From Candidatus Rhodoblastus alkanivorans (GTDB taxonomy: Bacteria; Pseudomonadota; Alphaproteobacteria; Rhizobiales; Beijerinckiaceae): DNA of 64,000 nucleotides. Location: contig NZ_JAIVFP010000001.1 in the NCBI RefSeq assembly GCF_022760755.1, positions 2,584,001 to 2,648,000 on the forward strand. The letters run 5' to 3'. The translations under genes were made by a program, and so were the position numbers. This document shows, piece after piece, positions 2,924 through 56,816 of the stretch; position 1 is the stretch's first letter, and each line of letters begins with the position of its first letter. Under the pieces are notes generated by a model. The model worked only from the letters and a program-made list of their open reading frames with translations, did no database searches and was not told the origin of the DNA.

Positions 2924-2953
2924 TAATTGATTGATATGGAGAAGACAGCTTCG

Positions 2954-3634
2954 ATGTCAAGATGCAATCAGAAACGAGCCTTGTTCGCCCAGTTCGCCGC
3001 CGTCGCCAAGGCGATGGCCCACGAGCACCGGCTCGAACTGCTCGAACTCGTGGCCCAGGGCGAGCGCAGCGTGGAAAACCTCGCCGAGCGCAGCGGCATT
3101 ACGATCGCCAACGCCTCCCAGCATTTGCAGCATTTGCGCCGCGCCGGCCTCGTCGCCGCGCGCCGCCAGGGCAAATTCGCGCTCTATCGCCTCGCCGACG
3201 ATTCCGTGCTGGCGATGCTGGCGGCGATGCGCAAGGTGGCCGAACGCAATATCGGCGAAGTGGACCGGATATTGCGCGCCTATTCCGACGCCAGTGACAA
3301 TCTGTCGCCGATGTCCCGCGCCGAACTGATGGGAAAACTGGAGAAGGGCGCCGTCACCGTCCTCGACGTGCGGCCCGAGGACGAATATGCCGCCGGCCAC
3401 CTCCCCGGCGCCCGCAACCTGCCACTCGACCAGATCAGCCGCGAGGCGCCGAAGCTCGGCCGCGACGACGAGATCGTCGCCTATTGCCGCGGCCCCTATT
3501 GCATCCTGTCCTTCGAGGCGGTGGCCGAACTGCGCAAAGCCGGCTTCAACGCCCGCCGGATGGAAGACGGCTTCCCGGAATGGAAAGCCGCGGGCCTGCC
3601 CGTGGAGAAGGGCGCGGGTTCGCGGGCGTCGTGA
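2954..3634 (+). CDS. ArsR-family regulator fused to a rhodanese domain
   Basis: 226 residues. Residues about 10-100 form an ArsR winged helix (AHEHRLELLELVAQGERSV, then recognition region ASQHLQHLRRAGLV). Residues about 115-220 form a rhodanese domain with VLDVRPEDEYAAGHLPGARN and an active-site loop holding two cysteines, YCRGPYC. I choose the ATG at 2954 because GGAGAAG lies 9 nt upstream. Earlier in-frame starts (ATG 2936, TTG 2927) lack a ribosome site and run into the operator. It is divergent from the RND operon and probably represses it, with the rhodanese cysteines sensing persulfide or another thiol-reactive signal. The fold is clear; the signal is inference. Confidence 0.9.
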   Translation: MSRCNQKRALFAQFAAVAKAMAHEHRLELLELVAQGERSVENLAERSGITIANASQHLQHLRRAGLVAARRQGKFALYRLADDSVLAMLAAMRKVAERNIGEVDRILRAYSDASDNLSPMSRAELMGKLEKGAVTVLDVRPEDEYAAGHLPGARNLPLDQISREAPKLGRDDEIVAYCRGPYCILSFEAVAELRKAGFNARRMEDGFPEWKAAGLPVEKGAGSRAS

Positions 3635-6146: not shown

Positions 6147-6572
6147 ATGTCCGAGACCAAGATCCCCGCCGAAGTCGCCCAAATTTCCAGCGAAAACGTC
6201 CGCAAAATGGCGGAAAAGGGCGTGAGCCAGGCCCGCGAAACCTACGAGAAGCTCAACGCCGCCGCCAAGGAAACCGCCGGCTCGCTCGACGCCAGCGCCT
6301 CCATCGTCCTCAAGGGCCTCGTCGAATTCAACGCCAAGGCGCTCGAAGCCTTTCACGCCAACGCCCACATGACCCTCGACTATCTGGCCTCGCTCGCCAG
6401 CGTGAAGGCCCCGACCGAAATCGTTCCGCTGCAGTCGGCCTATGCCGAGAAGCAGTTCAAGGCCCTCAACGATCAGACCAAGGACCTCTCCGCTCTGGCG
6501 CAGAAGATCGCCAAGGAATGCGTCGAGCCGATCAAGGGCCAGTTCGAAAAGACCCTGAAGTCCGCCGCCTGA
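6147..6572 (+). CDS. Phasin family protein (PHA granule-associated)
   Basis: 141 residues, almost entirely amphipathic helix rich in Ala, Lys and Glu without Cys-rich or transmembrane segments. The pattern around KGVSQARETYEKLNAAAKE and the central FNAKALEAFHANAHMTLDYL is that of the Phasin_2 family. These proteins coat intracellular polyhydroxybutyrate granules and limit their size. The upstream TGC-N3-GCA dyads and a downstream hairpin suggest a monocistronic unit. No PHA synthase is visible in the window. Confidence 0.9.
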   Translation: MSETKIPAEVAQISSENVRKMAEKGVSQARETYEKLNAAAKETAGSLDASASIVLKGLVEFNAKALEAFHANAHMTLDYLASLASVKAPTEIVPLQSAYAEKQFKALNDQTKDLSALAQKIAKECVEPIKGQFEKTLKSAA

Positions 6573-6582
6573 ACGGCTTGAA

Positions 6583-6616
6583 GCCGCCGCGTCGCCTTGT
6601 GGCGCGGCGGCGCTTT
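6583..6616 (+). terminator. Hairpin terminator after phasin gene
   Basis: A perfect 9-bp GC stem (6583-6591 with 6603-6611), an 11-nt loop and then GCTTT. It lies 10 bp after the phasin stop and 26 bp before the zorA-like start. The T-run is short, so it may attenuate rather than fully terminate. Confidence 0.55.
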
Positions 6617-6641
6617 GCAAATCGTGCGACGGCCGGGATGA

Positions 6642-9600
6642 ATGATGGATCGTTTCGCCGACCTTGTCCTGACGCCAATCGCCCTGTTTTCCGGCCGCCC
6701 CTTGGCGGTCGGCATCGCTTTCGGCATAATCGGCTCGGCGCTGCTGCTGTGGCTTCTGGCCCTGCGCCCCGCCGAACGCCGTTTCTTGAGCCCGCTGTGG
6801 CGAACCGCCCGCGCCCTGCGCGCATTGAGCGCCAAAGCGGAAACGCCTGAGGCCTTGTTCGCCGAGGCCGATGCGGTTTTCGCCGCGAACAGCCTCGCCC
6901 CCGCCTGGCGGCGCTACCATTCGGGGGTCGAATTTGAGGACGGCGCCGCCTTTTCCTATTCCGACCCGGCCGATTTCTTCGCACTCGTCCACCTGCCCGG
7001 CCATTCCTATCCCAAATGGTCGTCCACCCTTGCCGGCGTCTTTCTGACCGTCGGCCTGTTCTTCACCTTTGTCGGTCTGTCCGCCGCGCTCCTGCAGCTT
7101 GGCGGCCACGGTCACGATTCGCTGTCGCCGGCCCAGCTCAAACAGGCGGTCGAGGGCATTCTCGCCGTCAGCTCGGTCAAGTTCATCACCTCGATCGCTG
7201 GCATTCTCGCCTATATTTTCTGGAGCGTGATCGCGCGCCAGCAGGCTGGCGCCCAGACCCAGGCCGAGGACGCCCTGCTGCATGAAATCCGGGCGCTTTC
7301 GACCTATGTCGCGCCGGAAATGATCCTGCGCCGCCAATTGCGGCTGATGGAGGCCCAGAACGCCAGATTCGGCGGGCTGTTCGAGGCGCTCGACGTCCTG
7401 CCGCGCCGGATCGGCGACGTCCAGAGCGGCTTGGGCAATGAGATCGGACGCGGCGCGGAGGAGCTGAACCAGTCCGCCGCGCGCATGGCCGCTTTGATGG
7501 AGCAGAGCCAGGACCGCATGGCCGCGACGCTCGCCGCCTTCGAGCTCAAGATCGCCAATCTGCCCTCCGCCTTCGCCGCGACCGCCGAGCAGGGCGCGCG
7601 CGACATGAGCGCCGCGCTTCGCCAGACCCTCGACGGCGCCGCTTTAGCCGCCGACGAGGCCGGCCGCGCCGGCGCCGAGAAAATGACGGCCCGGATCGAG
7701 GGCGTGGCCGCCGCGCTCGCCGCCGCCGCCGCCGCGCTGACCCAGGCCGGCGTCGAGTCGCGCGCCCAGATGGCCGAGGGCGCCAAAGCCGTGTCGGCCT
7801 CCGGCGAAGAGGCCGCCGCGCGGCTGACCCGCATGGTTGACGCCTTCGCCTCGGCCGTCGGCCGCCTGTCCGAGCGGCTGGGCCAGACCGAGCAGGCGCT
7901 CGCCGCCCACAACGAGGAGCTCGACAGATCCGGCGCGGCCGTTGCAAGCGCCTCCGGCGAACTGGTCCACGCCGCGGGCGCCATGGAAGGCGCCGCCGCG
8001 CCGCTGACCGAGGCCACCCACACGTTCCGCGAAGCCATGGTCGGCCTGGGGGAAGCCGCCCGCCGCATCGAGACCATTGCCGCCTCGGGCGACCAGATCG
8101 CCGGCCATGTCGCCGCCTATGGCGCGCAGATGACTCATTCGCTCGCCTCGTTCGAATCCCTTTCCGAGACGTTCAAGGCGACCCAGACCGGCTTCGGCGA
8201 CGAAATCGGACGCGGCGCCGGCGAACTTTCGCAATCGGCGGCGCGGATGGCGGCGCAAATGGAGCAGGCGCAGGAGCGCCTCGCCGCGACCCTCGGCGCT
8301 TTCGAAGCCAGGATCGCGGGCATCGCGCCGGCGATCGCCGCGGCCGCCGAGGACAGCACGCGCAAGGCCGGCTCCGCTTTGCTCGCCTCGCTCGACAGCG
8401 CCGCCCAGGTGACCGAACAGGCCAGCCGCACCAACAGCGAAGAGATTTCGGCCCGCGTCGAAAGCGTCGCCGCCGCGCTCACCGCCGCGGCTTCGGCGCT
8501 GGCCCAGGCCGGCGTCGATTCCCGCGCGCAAATGTCCGAGGGCATGCAAGCCGTCACCGCCACGGGCGAAGAGGCCGCCGCGCGGCTGGCGCGCATGGTC
8601 GATTCCTTCGCCACCGCCGTCGCCAGCCTTTCAACCCGGCTCGACCAGACCGAGCAGGCGCTCGCCGCCCATAACGAGCGTCTCGACAAATCCGGCGAGA
8701 TCGTCTCCGGCGCCTCCAACAATCTGGCGCTGGCGGCCGGCGCCATGGAAAGCGCCGCCGCGCCTTTGACGACCGCGACGCTGACCTTCCGCGACGCCAT
8801 GACCCGCCTGACCGAAGCCGCCGCCCGCATCGAGCAGATTTCCAGCTCCGGCGACGCCATCGCCGGCCATATCGCCGCCTTCGGCGCGCAGATGACCGGC
8901 GCGCTGACCGCTTTCGACGCTTTGCCCGACAAGATCAAGGCGACCGAGGGCGGCTTCGGCGACGAAATCGGCCGCTCGGCGGCCGCGCTCGGCGAGGCCG
9001 CCAAACGCATGAGCGCCGGATTCGAACAGGGCCAGGCGTCGCTCGCGGCGACGCTCGCCTCGTTCGAGGCCAGAATTCTCGCCATGCCGGCGGCGCTGGC
9101 TTCGGCGTCCGAGCAATCCTCGCGCGAGATCGGCGAAAAGGTCCAGACCGCGCTCGACAGCGTCGCGGCGGTGGCGACGCGGGCGACGAGTGGCGGCGCC
9201 GATCTGTTCGCGGCGCGGGTCGACGAGATCGCCCGCTCGCTCGCCATGGCCGCCGACCGCCTGATGCAGGCGAGCGACGCCTCCGGCGTGAAAATGCGCG
9301 AGAGCCAGGACATGCTCGCCGCCGGCGCCGCCCAGGGCGCGCAGCTCATTTCCGGCGCGGCGGAAGGCTCGGCCGAGATGTTGAACCGGACCGTCGAACG
9401 TTTCGCCGATTCGGCGCGCGGCCTGTCGCTGAAACTGGCCGAGGTCGCGCTCGGCATGGACGCCCAGAACGCGCGGCTGGAAAAGGCGGGCGCCATCGTG
9501 TCGGGGGCGTCAGAAGCGCTCGCCGAGGCCGCCGGGACGGTCAAGGACGCGGCGCCGCCGCTCGCCTCGGCCAGCGCCTCGCTCAAGGGCGCCATGGACA

Positions 9601-9923
9601 ATTTCGCCGGCGCGGCCGAGCAGGTTCGGGCCGTTTCCGAATCCGGACGCCAAGTCGTCGAGACCTTCCGTCTTTCGGCGGCCCAGGCCAACGACAGCCT
9701 CGGCGCCCATGCCGCGAGCTTCCGCGAGGTCGAGCGCGCGGTCGCCAAAACGCTCGACGAACTGACCGGCGGCGTACAGGCCCTGGGCCACGAAATTTCG
9801 ACCTGTATCGAGACCTACGACAATGAAATCGCGCGCTCGATCGGCAGCCTGGAAGCGGCCCTGATCGACATGGGCGACATCATCGACAATCGCGCGGGCA
9901 AAAAGACCGCCGAGGCGCGCTGA
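6642..9923 (+). CDS. zorA: ZorA-like MotA/TolQ/ExbB-type channel protein with very long helical tail
   Basis: 1,093 residues. Three membrane helices are visible at about 20-41, 128-152 and 180-200; the second and third (GVFLTVGLFFTFVGL; VKFITSIAGILAYIF) have the MotA/ExbB proton-channel look. From about residue 230 to the end it is a continuous Ala/Glu/Arg-rich coiled coil with no enzymatic motif, built from tandem 254-residue repeats starting at 263, 517 and 771. ZorA of the Zorya anti-phage system has this plan: a membrane channel and a long intracellular tail that relays phage sensing by the ZorAB motor. The stop overlaps the start of the ZorB-like gene by one base. A non-defence ExbB/MotA-type role cannot be excluded. 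Confidence 0.75.
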   Translation: MMDRFADLVLTPIALFSGRPLAVGIAFGIIGSALLLWLLALRPAERRFLSPLWRTARALRALSAKAETPEALFAEADAVFAANSLAPAWRRYHSGVEFEDGAAFSYSDPADFFALVHLPGHSYPKWSSTLAGVFLTVGLFFTFVGLSAALLQLGGHGHDSLSPAQLKQAVEGILAVSSVKFITSIAGILAYIFWSVIARQQAGAQTQAEDALLHEIRALSTYVAPEMILRRQLRLMEAQNARFGGLFEALDVLPRRIGDVQSGLGNEIGRGAEELNQSAARMAALMEQSQDRMAATLAAFELKIANLPSAFAATAEQGARDMSAALRQTLDGAALAADEAGRAGAEKMTARIEGVAAALAAAAAALTQAGVESRAQMAEGAKAVSASGEEAAARLTRMVDAFASAVGRLSERLGQTEQALAAHNEELDRSGAAVASASGELVHAAGAMEGAAAPLTEATHTFREAMVGLGEAARRIETIAASGDQIAGHVAAYGAQMTHSLASFESLSETFKATQTGFGDEIGRGAGELSQSAARMAAQMEQAQERLAATLGAFEARIAGIAPAIAAAAEDSTRKAGSALLASLDSAAQVTEQASRTNSEEISARVESVAAALTAAASALAQAGVDSRAQMSEGMQAVTATGEEAAARLARMVDSFATAVASLSTRLDQTEQALAAHNERLDKSGEIVSGASNNLALAAGAMESAAAPLTTATLTFRDAMTRLTEAAARIEQISSSGDAIAGHIAAFGAQMTGALTAFDALPDKIKATEGGFGDEIGRSAAALGEAAKRMSAGFEQGQASLAATLASFEARILAMPAALASASEQSSREIGEKVQTALDSVAAVATRATSGGADLFAARVDEIARSLAMAADRLMQASDASGVKMRESQDMLAAGAAQGAQLISGAAEGSAEMLNRTVERFADSARGLSLKLAEVALGMDAQNARLEKAGAIVSGASEALAEAAGTVKDAAPPLASASASLKGAMDNFAGAAEQVRAVSESGRQVVETFRLSAAQANDSLGAHAASFREVERAVAKTLDELTGGVQALGHEISTCIETYDNEIARSIGSLEAALIDMGDIIDNRAGKKTAEAR
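7428..9746 (+). repeat. Three in-frame ~762-bp tandem repeats encoding the ZorA-like tail
   Basis: Repeat starts fall at 7428, 8190 and 8952, marked by the motif G(L/F)G(N/D)EIGRxA. Units 1 and 2 are exactly 762 bp (254 codons). A second landmark (LAAHNExLD) at residues 423 and 677 keeps the 254 spacing, but the matching site in unit 3 is at residue 942. Unit 3 therefore carries 11 extra residues and is more diverged. Confidence 0.85.
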
Positions 9924-10858
9924 TGTTCTCCGCCCGCGTCCATAAAATCGAGGAAGAGGAAAAGAAGGACGTCTTCGCGCCGGTCGCGGACCTCATGGTC
10001 GGCGTGGTGTTCATCTTCATCATCATGGTCCTGGCTTTGTCGCTGGTGATGATGGAGGACGCTGTCCCGCGTTCGCTTTACGACCAGACCACGAAAGAAC
10101 TGCAGCGGGTCACGGCCCAGCGCGACGCCCTGGAAAAACGGGCGGCAAAACTCTCCGACTTTGTCGCCTTCCTCAAGACCCAGGGCGTCGTTCCCCTGCT
10201 CGACCGTCTCGCCGAGGCCGACGCCACCCGCGCCGAAATCCTGAAAATGCTGCAAAAGCGCCTCGCCGCCAGGGGCGTGACTGTCGAGGCCGATTTCCGC
10301 GACGGCGTGCTGCGCCTGCCGACCGGCAATCTGTTCGAATCGGGCAAGGCTGACCCGACCCCCTACGGCCGCGACGTGATCCGGCTGTTGGGCGCCGCTT
10401 TGGCCGATGTCGCGCCCTGCTTCCTGCCGGGCGCCTCGGCCAGATCCGGGCAGATTGCGGCCTGCCCGCCGCAATCGCGCGGCAGCGTGCTGAACGCGGT
10501 CTATATCGAGGGCCACACCGATTCCGCGCCCCTGCGCGGCGGCGCGGGCTTTCGCGACAATTGGGATCTTTCCGCCGCCCGCGCCATCGCCGCCTTTCGC
10601 ATCGCGCGCGACTCCGACCCGCGCGTGCCGAATCTCAGGAACGCCGAGGGCAAGAGCCTGCTCGGCGTCAGCGGCTATGCCGACACCAGGCCCGTGACCG
10701 TAGGCCTCACCGAGAAGGAGCGTTCCGACAAGGCGATCATGGAGCGCGACCGCCGCATCGAGGTCCGGCTGATCATGGCGGTCAACCGCGACGAGGTGGA
10801 AAAGACTCTTCGCGAACTGAACAAAAGGCTGGACAGCCTCGATGCCGTCGCCAAGTGA
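9923..10858 (+). CDS. zorB: ZorB-like MotB/OmpA-type stator partner
   Basis: 311 residues with a short charged cytoplasmic N terminus and a single membrane helix at about 18-42 (FAPVADLMVGVVFIFIIMVL). Asp23 is in the position of the proton-binding Asp of MotB/ZorB. A periplasmic linker follows, then an OmpA-like peptidoglycan-binding domain (YIEGHTDSAP, NWDLSAARA, RDRRIEVRL). It is the expected partner of the upstream MotA-like protein: the TM helices plug the channel and the OmpA domain anchors to the cell wall. It overlaps zorA by 1 nt and the next gene by 17 nt. The gene family is clear; the Zorya label rests on the neighbours. Confidence 0.78.
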   Translation: MFSARVHKIEEEEKKDVFAPVADLMVGVVFIFIIMVLALSLVMMEDAVPRSLYDQTTKELQRVTAQRDALEKRAAKLSDFVAFLKTQGVVPLLDRLAEADATRAEILKMLQKRLAARGVTVEADFRDGVLRLPTGNLFESGKADPTPYGRDVIRLLGAALADVAPCFLPGASARSGQIAACPPQSRGSVLNAVYIEGHTDSAPLRGGAGFRDNWDLSAARAIAAFRIARDSDPRVPNLRNAEGKSLLGVSGYADTRPVTVGLTEKERSDKAIMERDRRIEVRLIMAVNRDEVEKTLRELNKRLDSLDAVAK

Positions 10859-12209
10859 CAAGACAGGTGTCGGGACAGGTGACGGGACTTGGCTCGCGCA
10901 GCGTTCGCGGCTCGCCCGCCTCGCCAGAGATCTTGAAGAGCGCCACGGACCCGGGCGAGCCTTGCCCGGGTCGCCGGAGCGGGTGATCGACCGCGCCGCG
11001 CGAAAACTCGCCGCGAGCGGGGGCGACATCGATGCGCTGGATTTTGCCGAGAAGAAAGCCGTGCTCGAACTGTTGTGGCGCCGGCGCGGTCCCTGGATCG
11101 CGCGCGAGCCGGACATCGAGGCCTGGCTGCGCTGGGCCGGGACTGACTGGAAGCCGCGCATCGCGGAAACGCGCGTCTGCATGGCGCTGCTGCGCCATTA
11201 CGACCCCGAGCTTCCCGTCGCCGGTCTAAGCCAATCCTGGCTGTCCGGGCGCGCCGGGGCGCTATGGGGCCGATTCGGCGATTTCGCCCGCACCTGGCGG
11301 CTGTGGGAAGGCGTGGAAGCGGTCGCGCGGGTCGCCGGGTCGCTGGCGGCGGGCGATCTTTCCTTCCTGCGCGACGGCGAACGCGCCGCCCAGACGCGCC
11401 CCATCCTGCAAGGCTCGGGCTTTCTCGTCGCCGTGGCCGAGAACTACGCCTTGCGCGCCGCGGCTGCCGGCGACTGGACGGCGGCGGGGTCCATGCTGGA
11501 TTTCTTCGAACCTGCCGGTCTCCTTGGCGCCGGCGGCCCCGCCGCGGCGCGGGCGCGGGCCAAGATCGCCTTCGTTTCCGGCCTGGTCGGTTTCGGCGCG
11601 CGCAGCGGCGCCGAAACCATCGGCCATGCGCTGAAACTCGCTTTCCGCATCGCCGGCGACCCGCGCGCGGGGCTGGAGGATTGGCGCGACATTCCCGAGG
11701 ACGTGCTTGCGCAGGTCGAGCGCTGGCTGGCGGCGGACACGCTTGAGGCCGCCTTCCGCATCGTCGCGGATTTGCGCACCGACGAGCCGGACGCGCTGGC
11801 GCGCCGCCGCGCCTTCTGGCGGGCTTTTCTGCCTTTCGTGACGCGGGCGCGGCTCATCGGCGCGCGCAAGGCGCAGAGCGCCGCCGTCTTGCTCCATGCG
11901 CCCTGTTCGTCGCTTTCGACTTATTTGAGCGACCATTGCGGCTTTCTGCTGGAGCTTCGGGGACCGGACGGGCGCGATCTCGTCGTGCTGGAGCTGAACA
12001 ATCTCGCCCAGAGCCTGTTCTGGCCCGGCGACGACCCGCGCGCGCCCGGCTTCGACCAGCGCGCCTATGACGGCGGCGCCCTGCGCGCGAAATGCGACCG
12101 CGCCTTGAGCCACCTGCCGCCGCAAGGCTGGGAAGAGAAATTCGCTCAGCTGATCGCCCAGGAAACCGGAATTGTTCTGCCAGCGTTCAGCTCGAAGGAT
12201 TTTCAATAG
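10842..12209 (+). CDS. zorC: EH-signature protein, ZorC-like
   Basis: 455 residues, soluble, Arg/Ala-rich helical N-terminal part. The C-terminal region has the EH_Signature pattern: RRAFWRAFLPF, then a Glu in VVLELNN (E384), then a His in LSHLPPQGWEEKFAQLI (H424). From memory, E. coli ZorC has its functional Glu and His with a similar ~43-residue spacing. ZorC is a cytosolic DNA-associated component of type I Zorya. The gene starts inside zorB and nothing else follows in the operon: the ZorD helicase-nuclease that normally comes next is absent. No catalytic nuclease motif is seen here. Confidence 0.75.
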   Translation: MPSPSDKTGVGTGDGTWLAQRSRLARLARDLEERHGPGRALPGSPERVIDRAARKLAASGGDIDALDFAEKKAVLELLWRRRGPWIAREPDIEAWLRWAGTDWKPRIAETRVCMALLRHYDPELPVAGLSQSWLSGRAGALWGRFGDFARTWRLWEGVEAVARVAGSLAAGDLSFLRDGERAAQTRPILQGSGFLVAVAENYALRAAAAGDWTAAGSMLDFFEPAGLLGAGGPAAARARAKIAFVSGLVGFGARSGAETIGHALKLAFRIAGDPRAGLEDWRDIPEDVLAQVERWLAADTLEAAFRIVADLRTDEPDALARRRAFWRAFLPFVTRARLIGARKAQSAAVLLHAPCSSLSTYLSDHCGFLLELRGPDGRDLVVLELNNLAQSLFWPGDDPRAPGFDQRAYDGGALRAKCDRALSHLPPQGWEEKFAQLIAQETGIVLPAFSSKDFQ

Positions 12210-12299
12210 CGCGGCTCGTTCCTGTAGAGTCCGGCGCGGCGCCCGAGTCGCGCCGCGCTTCGGCTTTCGGGAGCGGAGCGCATTGGAAAGGACACACCC

Positions 12300-12539
12300 A
12301 TGAAAAAGGTGCTTTTCGCTCTCTTCGGCCTTGGCATGATCTTCGCCGACGTTTCCGCCGCCAACGCCGTCGTCTGCGCGCGCGGCCCCTATCGCGCCGG
12401 CTGCGCCGGTCCGCGCGGCGCCGTGGTCACCGGCCATCCGCACTATCGTCCCTATTATGGGCCGCATTATCGCCGTCCCTATTATGGGCCGCGTTATCAC
12501 CATCCCTATTACGGGCCGCGTTATCACCGTCCCTATTAA
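12300..12539 (+). CDS. Small secreted Tyr/His-rich protein, truncated by a nonsense codon
   Basis: 79 residues. It has a signal peptide (about 1-22, MKKVLFALFGLGMIFADVSAANA), then AVVCARGPYRAGCAGPRGAVV shared with the paralogue at 12723, then three and a bit PYYGPxYxx nonapeptide repeats. A TAA at 12537-12539 falls where the repeat should have Tyr. In the same frame the sequence continues GPRCYWRAGVRICR to a TGA at 12582-12584, matching the paralogue's Cys-containing C terminus. So this allele has probably lost its last 16 residues through one nonsense mutation. Function unknown; it is exported, and the Cys pairs suggest disulfides in the intact form. Confidence 0.75.
   Translation: MKKVLFALFGLGMIFADVSAANAVVCARGPYRAGCAGPRGAVVTGHPHYRPYYGPHYRRPYYGPRYHHPYYGPRYHRPY
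12450..12536 (+). repeat. 27-bp tandem repeat within the secreted-protein gene
   Basis: CCCTATTA starts at 12450, 12477, 12504 and 12531, an exact 27-bp period encoding PYYGPHYRR, PYYGPRYHH, PYYGPRYHR and then PY-stop. The copies differ by a few bases, so they are not brand-new duplications. Confidence 0.85.
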
Positions 12540-12722: not shown

Positions 12723-12911
12723 ATGAAGAAATTGGCTCTTGCTCTCTTCGCCCTCGGCATGGTCGTCGCCGACATGCCGGCCGCCAACGCGGTCGTCTGC
12801 GCGCGCGGCGTCTATCGCGCGGGCTGCGCCGGCCCGCGCGGCGCAGTGGTCACCCACCGCCGACCGCCGGTGCGCTGCTATTACCATCGCGGCGTGCGCG
12901 TCTGCCGCTGA
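12723..12911 (+). CDS. Small secreted protein, paralogue of the gene at 12300
   Basis: 62 residues. Signal peptide (about 1-23), then the shared AVVCARGxYRAGCAGPRGAV core, a short basic region and a C-terminal CYYHRGVRVCR. Four Cys remain in the mature protein. It lacks the PYYGP repeats of its neighbour but keeps the C terminus the neighbour has lost. The leader sequences of both genes (GGAGCGGAGCGCATYGG region) are also near-identical, so the duplication included the 5' untranslated region. This family is frequent in Hyphomicrobiales; no function is known to me. Confidence 0.75.
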   Translation: MKKLALALFALGMVVADMPAANAVVCARGVYRAGCAGPRGAVVTHRRPPVRCYYHRGVRVCR

Positions 12912-24724: not shown

Positions 24725-25012
24725 TCACCGCTTGCGCTTGGCCTTGCGTGTCTTGCTGTCGAAGGTCGGGGCGTAAAAATCCGGGTCCTTTTTCGTCACC
24801 CAGGCGATGAAACGGGCGATCTCCACATGGCCCCGCAGGGCCTCGATCGTATGGAACGCGCGCATGAATTCGCGCTCCGACAAAGCCGTATGGATTTTGC
24901 GATGGCAGATCGGGTGGCGCGGGACCGTCTCACGCCCGCCGAAAGTCCTGGGCGTCAGATGATGCGCTTCGACCTTCACGCCGAGCGGCCGGCGGCACAG
25001 GCTGCAGATCAT
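24725..25012 (-). CDS. Small HNH-family nuclease-like protein
   Basis: 95 residues from the ATG at 25012. A TTG at 25030 that overlaps the EamA stop (TTGA) is an alternative giving 101 residues. The pattern CSLC, AHHLTPR, then ICHRKIH is a compact HNH/zinc-binding motif, followed by a basic tail (KTRKAKRKR). Similar small HNH proteins, often beginning MIC, occur in many proteobacteria and their substrate is unknown. It is the last gene of an operon-like run usp-eamA-hnh. It is unlikely to be a Zorya ZorE: too small and 12 kb away. Confidence 0.75.
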   Translation of the reverse strand: MICSLCRRPLGVKVEAHHLTPRTFGGRETVPRHPICHRKIHTALSEREFMRAFHTIEALRGHVEIARFIAWVTKKDPDFYAPTFDSKTRKAKRKR

Positions 25013-25026
25013 CTTCTTGACCGGTT

Positions 25027-26100
25027 TCAACCATGCGAATGGCGGTGGTGCGAATCCGGGTAATGGGGATGGGCGTGGACCATCGGCGAGTGCCGATGGG
25101 GGTGGGAATGCGGCTCGATCACCGGCCCGTCGTGGCTGTGCCGATGGTGCTCGTCGTGGACATGGACGTGCTCATGCTCCACCGCCTCGTGGGCGTGCTC
25201 GTGCTCGTGCCGCTCGGCGAGATGCGGCCACAGGCCGAGGCCCATCAGGGCGCCGGCGATGAGCAGGCTGGCGGTCGGCTGCTCGTGCAGCAGGACCAGG
25301 GCCACCAGCGCCCCGATGAAGGGTGCGAGCGCGAAATAGGCCCCGGTGCGGGCCGCGCCCAATCGCCGCAGCGCCAGAATGTAGAGGACGAGACTGACGC
25401 CGACGCCGAAAAAGCCGAGCAGGCCGGCTGCCCCCGCGAGCAAGGCGCCGGGCGCCTCGGCCCCGCGGGCGAGAGCGGCGGAAGCATTGACCGAACCCGC
25501 CGCCAACCCCTTGATCGCCGCGATCGAGACCGGATCGGCGGAGGACAATTTGCGGGTGAGATTATTGTCGATCCCCCAGGCGACACAGGCGCCGGCGACC
25601 AGCAGCGCGCCTTTGTCCAAAGCCAGACCGCTCCCCTGCCAGGACAGGACGGCGGCCCCGGCCAGAATGGCCATGGCCCCGCCGAACAGGCGCGCGTCCA
25701 CATTTTCGCGAAAGACCAGCCACGCGATCGCCATGGTCGCCAGCCCTTCGAGATTGAGCAGCAGCGAGGCGTTGGCGGCGCTCGTCGCGCTCAGTCCCAT
25801 CATCAGCAGCAAAGGCCCGAGCAGGCCCCCGAACAACACGACCGCCGCGAGCCACGGCAGATCGCTCCGCCGCAGCGGCGCCTCGGGCGCGGGAAGCCCG
25901 ACCGCCCGCCGGCCAAAATGGAAGCCGGCAAGGCCAATCCCCGCGCCGAGATAAAGGAAGCCCGCAAGGAGCTGAGGATCGAAACGCTCCAGAAACAGTT
26001 TCGACAAGGGCGCGGTCAGGCCGAACAAAACCGCCGAGCCGAGCGCGAGCGGAACCCCCGGCCACAAATGGCCCAGACGATGGAGGACGGCCCCCGACAA
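25027..26100 (-). CDS. EamA/DMT-family transporter with histidine-rich C-terminal tail
   Basis: 357 residues. About 290 residues contain ten predicted membrane helices in two EamA repeats (SAVLFGLTAPLSKLFLERF; VAWGIDNNLTRKLSS). The last ~60 residues are a tail with about 23 histidines (HEHEHAHE, DEHHRHSH, PHSHPHRHS). DMT proteins export metabolites or amino acids. The tail suggests metal (nickel, zinc or cobalt) binding or transport, which is inference. It begins 3 nt after the stress-protein stop. Confidence 0.88.
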   Translation of the reverse strand: MSGAVLHRLGHLWPGVPLALGSAVLFGLTAPLSKLFLERFDPQLLAGFLYLGAGIGLAGFHFGRRAVGLPAPEAPLRRSDLPWLAAVVLFGGLLGPLLLMMGLSATSAANASLLLNLEGLATMAIAWLVFRENVDARLFGGAMAILAGAAVLSWQGSGLALDKGALLVAGACVAWGIDNNLTRKLSSADPVSIAAIKGLAAGSVNASAALARGAEAPGALLAGAAGLLGFFGVGVSLVLYILALRRLGAARTGAYFALAPFIGALVALVLLHEQPTASLLIAGALMGLGLWPHLAERHEHEHAHEAVEHEHVHVHDEHHRHSHDGPVIEPHSHPHRHSPMVHAHPHYPDSHHRHSHG

Positions 26101-55881: not shown

Positions 55882-56816
55882 AGAGCCTGACCTGAAATTG
55901 GTTGACCGGCCTCGCGGCCCTTGATTCCCTTGGTTTGCAACAACTTTGGGAGATTCGCGATGCCGTGGAGCGAGGCCGATCGCGCGAAGTATGAAGTCAT
56001 TCGGGCGCGCTATTCAAGCGATATGTCGGAGGCCGAACTGGCGCTGATTTCGCCGCTGTTGCCGCCGCCCAAACGGCGCGGACGCAAGCCGACAGATGCC
56101 CAGATCATTCTCAACGCCTTGTTTTATTTGATCCGCTGCGGCTGCCCATGGCGATATCTGCCGAAGGATTTTCCGCCGTTCACGACCGTGCAAAACCGCT
56201 TCTACGCGTGGCGCGACAGCGGCGTGTGGGCGCAAATCATCAGCGTTCTCGTGATGGACGCCCGCGAAGCGGAAAGCCGTGAGGCCGCGCCGACGGCTGT
56301 CGTCGTCGACAGCCAATCTGTCAAGACGACGGAAGCCGGCGGCCCCCGTGGTTTCGATGCGGGCAAGAAGGTCAAGGGGCGCAAGCGCCATCTCGCCGTC
56401 GACACGATCGGTCTGCCCATCGAATGCCAGATCACGACCGCCGACGTGCAGGACCGCGACGCTCTCGCGCCGTTGCTGAAGGCCGTGCATCGCAAGAGCC
56501 CGTGGGTGAAAATGTCCTTCGTCGACGGGGGTTATCAGGGTGATGAAGCCAAGCGCGCAGCCTTCGAGGCGAGCCGCATTTCCATCACCGTCGTCAAGCG
56601 AACCGATAAAGAGGTGAAAGGATTTACGGTGCTGCCGAAACGCTGGGTCGTCGAAAGGACGCTCGGTTGGATCAATCGCGCGCGCCGTCTGTCAAAAGAC
56701 TTCGAGGCGACCATCGAATCCGCCCTCGCGTGGCTGCAATTGGCCCTGGCTTTCCTTCTCATGCGAAGGCTGGCGAGGGCAAAAGCCAGTCAGAATTGAA
56801 ATTCGAGTCGGGTTCT
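55882..56816 (+). mobile_element. IS5-family insertion sequence (~935 bp)
   Basis: Imperfect terminal inverted repeats: the left end AGAGCCTGACCTGAAATT (55882-) matches the reverse complement of the right end (to 56816) at about 13 of 18 bases. One transposase gene fills the element. I could not identify a convincing target duplication, so the ends are approximate by a few bases. Confidence 0.75.
55960..56799 (+). CDS. IS5-family transposase
   Basis: 279 residues, single intact frame. N-terminal ELALISPLLPPPKRRGRK and CGCPWRYLPKDFPPFTTV (DUF4096-type), then the DDE domain: VVVDSQSVKTTEAGG with the first Asp, SFVDGGYQGDEAKR with the second, and LPKRWVVERTLGWINRARRL with the Glu of the Y-(2)-R-(3)-E motif replaced by the usual VVERTLGW form. 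It looks active: no stops or frameshifts. Confidence 0.93.
   Translation: MPWSEADRAKYEVIRARYSSDMSEAELALISPLLPPPKRRGRKPTDAQIILNALFYLIRCGCPWRYLPKDFPPFTTVQNRFYAWRDSGVWAQIISVLVMDAREAESREAAPTAVVVDSQSVKTTEAGGPRGFDAGKKVKGRKRHLAVDTIGLPIECQITTADVQDRDALAPLLKAVHRKSPWVKMSFVDGGYQGDEAKRAAFEASRISITVVKRTDKEVKGFTVLPKRWVVERTLGWINRARRLSKDFEATIESALAWLQLALAFLLMRRLARAKASQN

What the first reader, a model, noticed from the sequence alone, without database searches (positions are those of the whole stretch)
6642..12209. ZorABC-like operon with no effector nuclease
Three overlapping genes encode a MotA-like channel with a giant helical tail, a MotB/OmpA partner with the conserved Asp, and an EH-signature protein (E384, H424). 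This is the ZorA-ZorB-ZorC order of type I Zorya, but no ZorD helicase-nuclease, no ZorE HNH nuclease and no defence genes follow. The flanks are housekeeping (phasin, small secreted proteins, glycogen operon). Either the effector is encoded elsewhere, ZorC alone suffices, or this is a vertically inherited non-defence use of the motor. Codon and GC character look host-like, which favours the last.
Basis: partly seen in the sequence, partly recalled or inferred. Interest (0 to 1): 0.82.

Follow-up and report, generated by a model that had tools for sequence, protein, structure and literature searches.

The report
Zorya-like motor operon lacking its nuclease
Three Rhodoblastus species carry, at one fixed chromosomal site, a stable and selected three-gene version of the Zorya anti-phage motor (ZorA, ZorB, ZorC) with an enlarged tail and no ZorD helicase-nuclease found in the genome; it matters because the tested type I Zorya cannot protect without ZorD, so this variant should use another output.

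Summary
zorA (6645-9923), zorB (9923-10858) and zorC (10842-12209) overlap and match PADLOC type I ZorA, ZorB and ZorC (5e-25, 6e-63, 1e-18). Channel residues, the ZorB Asp (D23), peptidoglycan-binding motifs and EH residues E384 and H424 are intact. No ZorD follows, and a ZorD HMM finds none in this genome or in the two other Rhodoblastus genomes that hold the operon at the same phasin/glgP site. Three sister species lack it there. Synonymous divergence is close to that of flanking genes and dN/dS is 0.15-0.36: old, selected, apparently inherited vertically and lost repeatedly.

It is not a one-strain loss. Of 48 ZorB loci surveyed, 29 have ZorD; besides Rhodoblastus, two further ZorD-less groups exist: one alphaproteobacterial lineage and a 15-locus clade of the same phylum whose ZorA is also giant and whose ZorC has its EH half replaced by a CheA-type Hpt domain.

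Best reading: a ZorD-less, giant-tailed variant of type I Zorya whose output rests on ZorC and the motor, more likely still defence (about 0.5) than a non-defence envelope sensor (about 0.27). Function is inferred, not shown.

The parts
6645..9923 (+). zorA: MotA/TolQ-like channel subunit, 1092 aa from the conserved ATG (6642 ATG also possible); long helical tail
   Evidence: PADLOC ZorA1 5e-25, match 128-239; TFxGL and KFxTS channel motifs conserved; orthologues of 1172 and 1176 aa
7368..9173 (+). stretch of the ZorA tail built by tandem duplication of a 254-residue unit (aa 242-589 repeats as aa 496-843; about 2.4 copies)
   Evidence: BLOSUM autocorrelation at lag 254 = 1.57 against mean -0.38, sd 0.16; 58% aa and 69% nt identity
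9923..10858 (+). zorB: MotB/OmpA-like subunit, 311 aa, start overlaps zorA stop
   Evidence: PADLOC ZorB1 6e-63; nearest solved structure is type I ZorB 8vvn, 1.4e-17
9989..9991 (+). codon of the ion-carrying Asp, ZorB D23
   Evidence: alignment with 15 other ZorB proteins
10842..12209 (+). zorC: EH-signature protein, 455 aa, overlaps zorB by 17 nt
   Evidence: Pfam EH_Signature 3.7e-12, PADLOC ZorC1 1e-18
11991..11993 (+). codon of ZorC E384 (EH signature Glu)
   Evidence: invariant in the 8-row ZorC alignment
12111..12113 (+). codon of ZorC H424 (EH signature His)
   Evidence: invariant in the 8-row ZorC alignment
6573..12299 (.). interval between the phasin stop and the small secreted gene: filled with zorABC here and in G335 and G343, without zorABC in G228, G341 and G342
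   Evidence: tblastn synteny and junction alignments

Best explanation
A ZorD-less, giant-tailed variant of type I Zorya. ZorA5B2 is expected to form the usual inner-membrane ion-driven motor: ZorB's OmpA-like domain grips peptidoglycan when the wall is disturbed (for example by phage injection), ions pass the ZorB D23/ZorA Thr-Ser ring, and the ZorA tail, here about 870 residues against about 460 in solved type I ZorA, turns or shifts and recruits ZorC. Since no ZorD is available, the output must come from ZorC itself (binding or blocking incoming DNA, as the non-cleaving KwaB of Kiwa does), from ion flux, or from a host enzyme unrelated to ZorD. Most likely it is still anti-phage. Shown here: gene content, intact key residues, absence of ZorD-like proteins, presence/absence at one site with species-like divergence, purifying selection, tail lengthened by internal duplication, and other ZorD-less lineages. 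Inferred: 5:2 assembly, sensing, ZorC recruitment, defence role, the nature of the output.
For: Type I profile matches for all three proteins and intact channel, PG-binding and EH residues. The ZorD HMM (12 sequences) finds nothing in G000, G335 or G343; a single ZorD query agrees. dN/dS 0.22 (zorA), 0.15 (zorB), 0.34 (zorC) and dS 0.56-0.71, near glgP/glgC at 0.48-0.61, so the genes are working and old. Presence/absence among sister species at one site fits a dispensable defence gene set. ZorD-less ZorABC recurs elsewhere, and giant ZorA goes with it: 15 of 16 ZorD-less ZorA are 1092-1609 aa, the one exception (G380) 507 aa, while 23 ZorD-bearing ones are 589-793 aa. Zorya III protects with no recognised nuclease (PMC8565338).
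Against: In Serratia Zorya I, deletion of each component, ZorD included (construct ZorABC), abolished protection against phage Alma (PMC11890865). The operon is not in a defence island and appears inherited with its neighbours. One ZorD-less ZorA (G380) is short, so tail length is not a strict correlate. No experiment, expression data or usable ZorC model (pLDDT 46).
Confidence: 0.5

Rival explanations
1. A non-defence use of the motor: an envelope or peptidoglycan stress sensor whose tail and ZorC report to a cellular pathway; vertically inherited and accessory.
For: Housekeeping site, host-like GC3 (0.82-0.87 against 0.82-0.83 for glgB, glgC, glgA), vertical inheritance. In the phylum-wide ZorD-less clade ZorC has its EH half replaced by a CheA-type Hpt domain, suggesting rewiring to signalling; full-length ZorC of that kind is in 10 of 18 genomes of one family.
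Against: Rhodoblastus ZorC keeps E384/H424 and has no Hpt domain. Absence in close relatives shows it is dispensable. No co-conserved partner gene was found next to it.
Confidence: 0.27
2. The effector is in trans: an unrelated host nuclease or helicase replaces ZorD.
For: Type I needs ZorD in the case tested (PMC11890865); some genomes of the other ZorD-less clade also carry a separate ZorABCD locus (G798, G866).
Against: No ZorD-like protein in G000, G335, G343, nor in G786 of the other clade. The only HNH-like ORF nearby (24725-25030, minus strand) does not track zorABC: not found in G335 and G343, found in five species without the operon.
Confidence: 0.15
3. A remnant: a full ZorABCD that lost zorD and is decaying.
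For: ZorD follows zorC in all seven other ZorB loci examined in the same bacterial family.
Against: All three species have intact, overlapping ORFs, dN/dS well under 1 since a divergence of dS about 0.6, and no ZorD trace between zorC and the next gene.
Confidence: 0.06

Closest known systems
Type I Zorya (ZorA-ZorB-ZorC-ZorD)
   Same: Gene order, overlapping genes, ZorA/B/C profile matches, channel, PG-binding and EH residues
   Different: No ZorD in cis or found in the genome; ZorA 1092-1176 aa against 589-793 aa in ZorD-bearing systems; about 20% ZorC identity; long branch in ZorB and ZorAB trees; fixed chromosomal site, not a defence island
Type III Zorya (ZorA-ZorB-ZorF-ZorG)
   Same: Long ZorA in some profiles (PADLOC ZorA3, 1063 positions) and no recognised nuclease, yet protective (PMC8565338)
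   Different: Type III has DUF3348 and DUF2894 proteins and no EH-signature ZorC; ZorA/B here score far better with type I models
ZorD-less clade found here (L129-L138, L140, L143, L144, L147, L148)
   Same: ZorABC without ZorD next to it, ZorA 1154-1610 aa
   Different: ZorC C-terminal half is a mostly degenerate CheA-type Hpt domain instead of the EH half; separate clade in the trees
Flagellar MotAB, TolQR/ExbBD
   Same: 5:2 motor fold expected; MotB-type OmpA domain
   Different: Nearest solved ZorB is type I Zorya, ten orders of magnitude better than MotB; giant tail; EH partner

Membership tests
Zorya core (ZorAB) | ZorA matches MotA/ExbB-type Zorya profiles with conserved polar channel motifs and a long C-terminal tail | tested here: met
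   PADLOC ZorA1 5e-25; TFxGL/KFxTS motifs in an alignment of 18 ZorA proteins
Zorya core (ZorAB) | ZorB with transmembrane Asp and OmpA-like peptidoglycan-binding domain | tested here: met
   ZorB1 6e-63; D23, EGHTD, LSxxRA, RRI motifs; 8vvn match 1.4e-17
Type I Zorya | ZorC with EH signature downstream of zorB | tested here: met
   Pfam 46.7 bits against cut-off 27.5; E384 and H424 invariant
Type I Zorya | ZorD Snf2-type helicase-nuclease encoded next to zorC | tested here: not met
   Absent in three species at the locus and not found in their genomes, which are 98-100% complete; so it is not filed as a member of type I
Type I Zorya | NCBIfam curated cut-offs for ZorA_1 and ZorB1 | tested here: not met
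   82.5 bits against 190 and 12.6 against 400
Type II Zorya | ZorE HNH nickase next to zorB | tested here: not met
   Next gene is zorC, then a small secreted protein; distal HNH-like ORF is unlinked
Type III Zorya | ZorF and ZorG beside zorAB | tested here: not met
   Neighbours are phasin, zorC, small secreted genes and glgP; no PADLOC ZorF/ZorG hit among flanking proteins tested
Any Zorya | Protection against phage | not testable with these tools
   Needs a plaque assay

The most novel reading that the evidence does not exclude
ZorD-less ZorABC with a giant ZorA tail is a recurrent functional class of its own, in which the peptidoglycan-sensing motor drives a non-nucleolytic output (DNA capture by ZorC in Rhodoblastus, a CheA-derived Hpt-type module in the other clade), possibly signalling rather than phage defence.
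Probability: 0.3. Interest if true: 0.8.

Novelty: new variant of a known kind. Interest (0 to 1): 0.58.

Why it matters
In the type I system tested, ZorABC without ZorD does nothing, so how the ZorAB motor signal is passed on is entangled with the nuclease. A natural, selected ZorABC without ZorD separates the two: it makes it directly testable whether ZorC and motor activity alone do something, and whether tail length sets the reach or partner choice. No paper found in the held library describes such a variant.

Tried and rejected
Nearby or distant ZorD: single query and HMM, negative in all three genomes. HNH-like ORF at 24725-25030 as ZorE-like effector: distribution does not follow zorABC. 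Strain-specific loss of zorD: rejected, all three species lack it. Recent transfer between Rhodoblastus species: disfavoured by dS equal to or above that of flanking genes. Flagellar/TolQ assignment: rejected. AlphaFold2 of ZorC from two sequences: mean pLDDT 46, not used. One origin of all ZorD-less systems: the best concatenated ZorA-ZorB tree has three separate lineages, but the AU test does not reject one clade (p 0.142; p 0.341 for ZorB alone), so it is left open. Plasmid homologues of ZorC: none; ZorB hits are weak (4 records), and the two Zymomonas ones opened carry complete ZorABCD. A first glgP tree was wrong because four loci were read on the wrong strand; it was redone. Phasin dN/dS and the zorA/G343 value were in wrong frames and are not used (zorA redone). 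A viral-contig scan with the ZorC alignment could not run. The search with PDLC00625 was a mistaken accession (a ZorC, not a ZorD model) and says nothing.

Full report
What is there. Three overlapping plus-strand genes lie between a phasin gene (stop at 6572) and a small secreted-protein gene (12300): zorA 6645-9923 (the relatives start at the second ATG), zorB 9923-10858 and zorC 10842-12209. zorA/zorB overlap by one base, zorB/zorC by 17, as expected for a translationally coupled operon. ZorA matches PADLOC ZorA1 (5e-25), ZorB ZorB1 (6e-63), ZorC ZorC1 (1e-18) and Pfam EH_Signature (3.7e-12). NCBIfam matches stay far below their curated cut-offs: the system is a divergent one.

Key residues. 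The ZorA motifs TFxGL and KFxTS, the ZorB Asp (D23), and the OmpA-domain motifs EGHTD, LSxxRA and RRI are conserved. ZorC E384 and H424 are invariant in an alignment with ZorD-associated ZorC proteins. The nearest solved relative of ZorB is type I ZorB 8vvn (1.4e-17), ahead of MotB (2.6e-7). So nothing points to a broken motor or to a flagellar or Tol protein.

The tail. ZorA has 1092 residues here and 1172 and 1176 in two relatives; part of the tail is a tandem duplication of a 254-residue unit (58% amino-acid identity of aa 242-589 with 496-843). Type I ZorA of Shewanella has its tail at residues 236-696 (PMC11890865). At 0.15 nm per residue for a continuous helix, about 870 tail residues would reach about 130 nm against about 70 nm; this is arithmetic, not a measurement.

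Where it occurs. Three of 11 genomes of the genus have it, all at the same phasin-glgP site and none with a fourth gene. G228, G341 and G342 keep the flanking order without zorABC. On a glgP tree the window species groups with the empty-site species G228 and G341 (100/98), while the other two carriers form a separate pair. Synonymous divergence of zorA, zorB and zorC between window and relatives (0.56-0.71) is at or slightly above that of glgP and glgC (0.48-0.61), and dN/dS is 0.15-0.36. The simplest account is one ancestral operon, kept under purifying selection and lost at least twice; two insertions at one site with the same divergence are less likely but not excluded. GC3 is host-like.

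No ZorD. A ZorD protein and a 12-sequence ZorD HMM find nothing in G000, G335 or G343, although the same HMM finds Snf2-type proteins in 17 of the 22 genomes searched. In the same bacterial family, seven of seven other ZorB loci examined sit in ABCD operons. A class-wide ZorC search gave eleven further loci, ten with ZorD. The exception, G380 (L093), is a ZorABC with short ZorA (507 aa) between an adenylate-cyclase gene and an M10 peptidase gene. A contig of a second genome of the same genus has the same cyclase, zorA and zorB but ends inside zorC.

A second ZorD-less group. A phylum-wide search led to 15 loci with ZorA of 1154-1610 aa, ZorB of 309-322 aa and a ZorC of about 418-447 aa, with no ZorD beside them and with different genes downstream. 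Their ZorC keeps the N-terminal part of the EH_Signature domain but ends in an Hpt domain (Pfam 6e-7 to 7e-3 in three members tested) that resembles the Hpt domain of a CheA-like kinase in the same genome; the phospho-acceptor His is replaced in most. In one bacterial family, 10 of the 18 genomes held have it. In the concatenated ZorA-ZorB tree the three ZorD-less groups lie apart, but a single origin is not rejected (p 0.142). In that tree's data 23 ZorA proteins with ZorD have 589-793 aa; 15 of 16 without ZorD have 1092 or more. Since the loci are related by descent, this is two lineages with giant tails, not 15 independent cases.

How it most likely works. Known type I and II systems: a 5:2 ion-driven motor senses wall disturbance through ZorB, and the ZorA tail recruits ZorC/ZorD or ZorE (PMC11890865, PMC12904381). 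The intact residues suggest that sensing and motion work here as well. The output is the open question. ZorABC of Serratia, without ZorD, does not protect against phage Alma (PMC11890865), so a plain loss of ZorD should be useless; long-term purifying selection says the Rhodoblastus operon is not. I favour a ZorD-independent output through ZorC and the long tail, still in defence (0.5); Zorya III and Kiwa KwaB are precedents for protection without a recognised or active nuclease (PMC8565338, PMC12904381). A non-defence envelope sensor (0.27) and an unrelated effector in trans (0.15) remain.

Limits. Function is not tested. The genome survey is a sample, the species tree rests on one gene, and the ZorC fold could not be modelled. 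Papers of subscription journals are largely missing, and the main Nature paper on Zorya I was not held, so a published mention of ZorD-less variants may have been missed.

Noticed in passing
L129-L138, L140, L143, L144, L147, L148 (e.g. L132:1420-7446): ZorABC operons without ZorD with ZorA of 1154-1610 aa, whose ZorC has its EH-bearing C-terminal half replaced by a CheA-type Hpt domain; phospho-acceptor His mostly substituted (N, R or Q), kept as HSIKG in L137.
   Followed up: partly
L093:3621-7236 (G380): A further ZorD-less ZorABC with a short ZorA (507 aa), beside CheA-like and adenylate-cyclase genes; a same-genus genome (L171) shares the cyclase, zorA and zorB.
   Followed up: partly
12300-12539 and 12723-12911 (+): Two paralogous small secreted proteins in tandem, the first with YYGPRYHRP-like repeats; in each of five relatives both match the same single place, so the duplication looks specific to the window species.
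   Followed up: partly
24725-25030 (-): Small Cys/His-rich ORF with an HNH-like look (no Pfam match); patchy in the genus but not correlated with zorABC.
   Followed up: yes
L149, L151 (G798, G866): Genomes that hold both a complete ZorABCD and a separate ZorD-less giant-tailed ZorABC.
   Followed up: partly
55921-56799 (+): ORF whose start resembles an IS5-type transposase (by eye; not searched).
   Followed up: no
2927-3634 (+): ArsR-type HTH fused to a rhodanese domain, next to an HlyD/ABC export cluster on the other strand.
   Followed up: no
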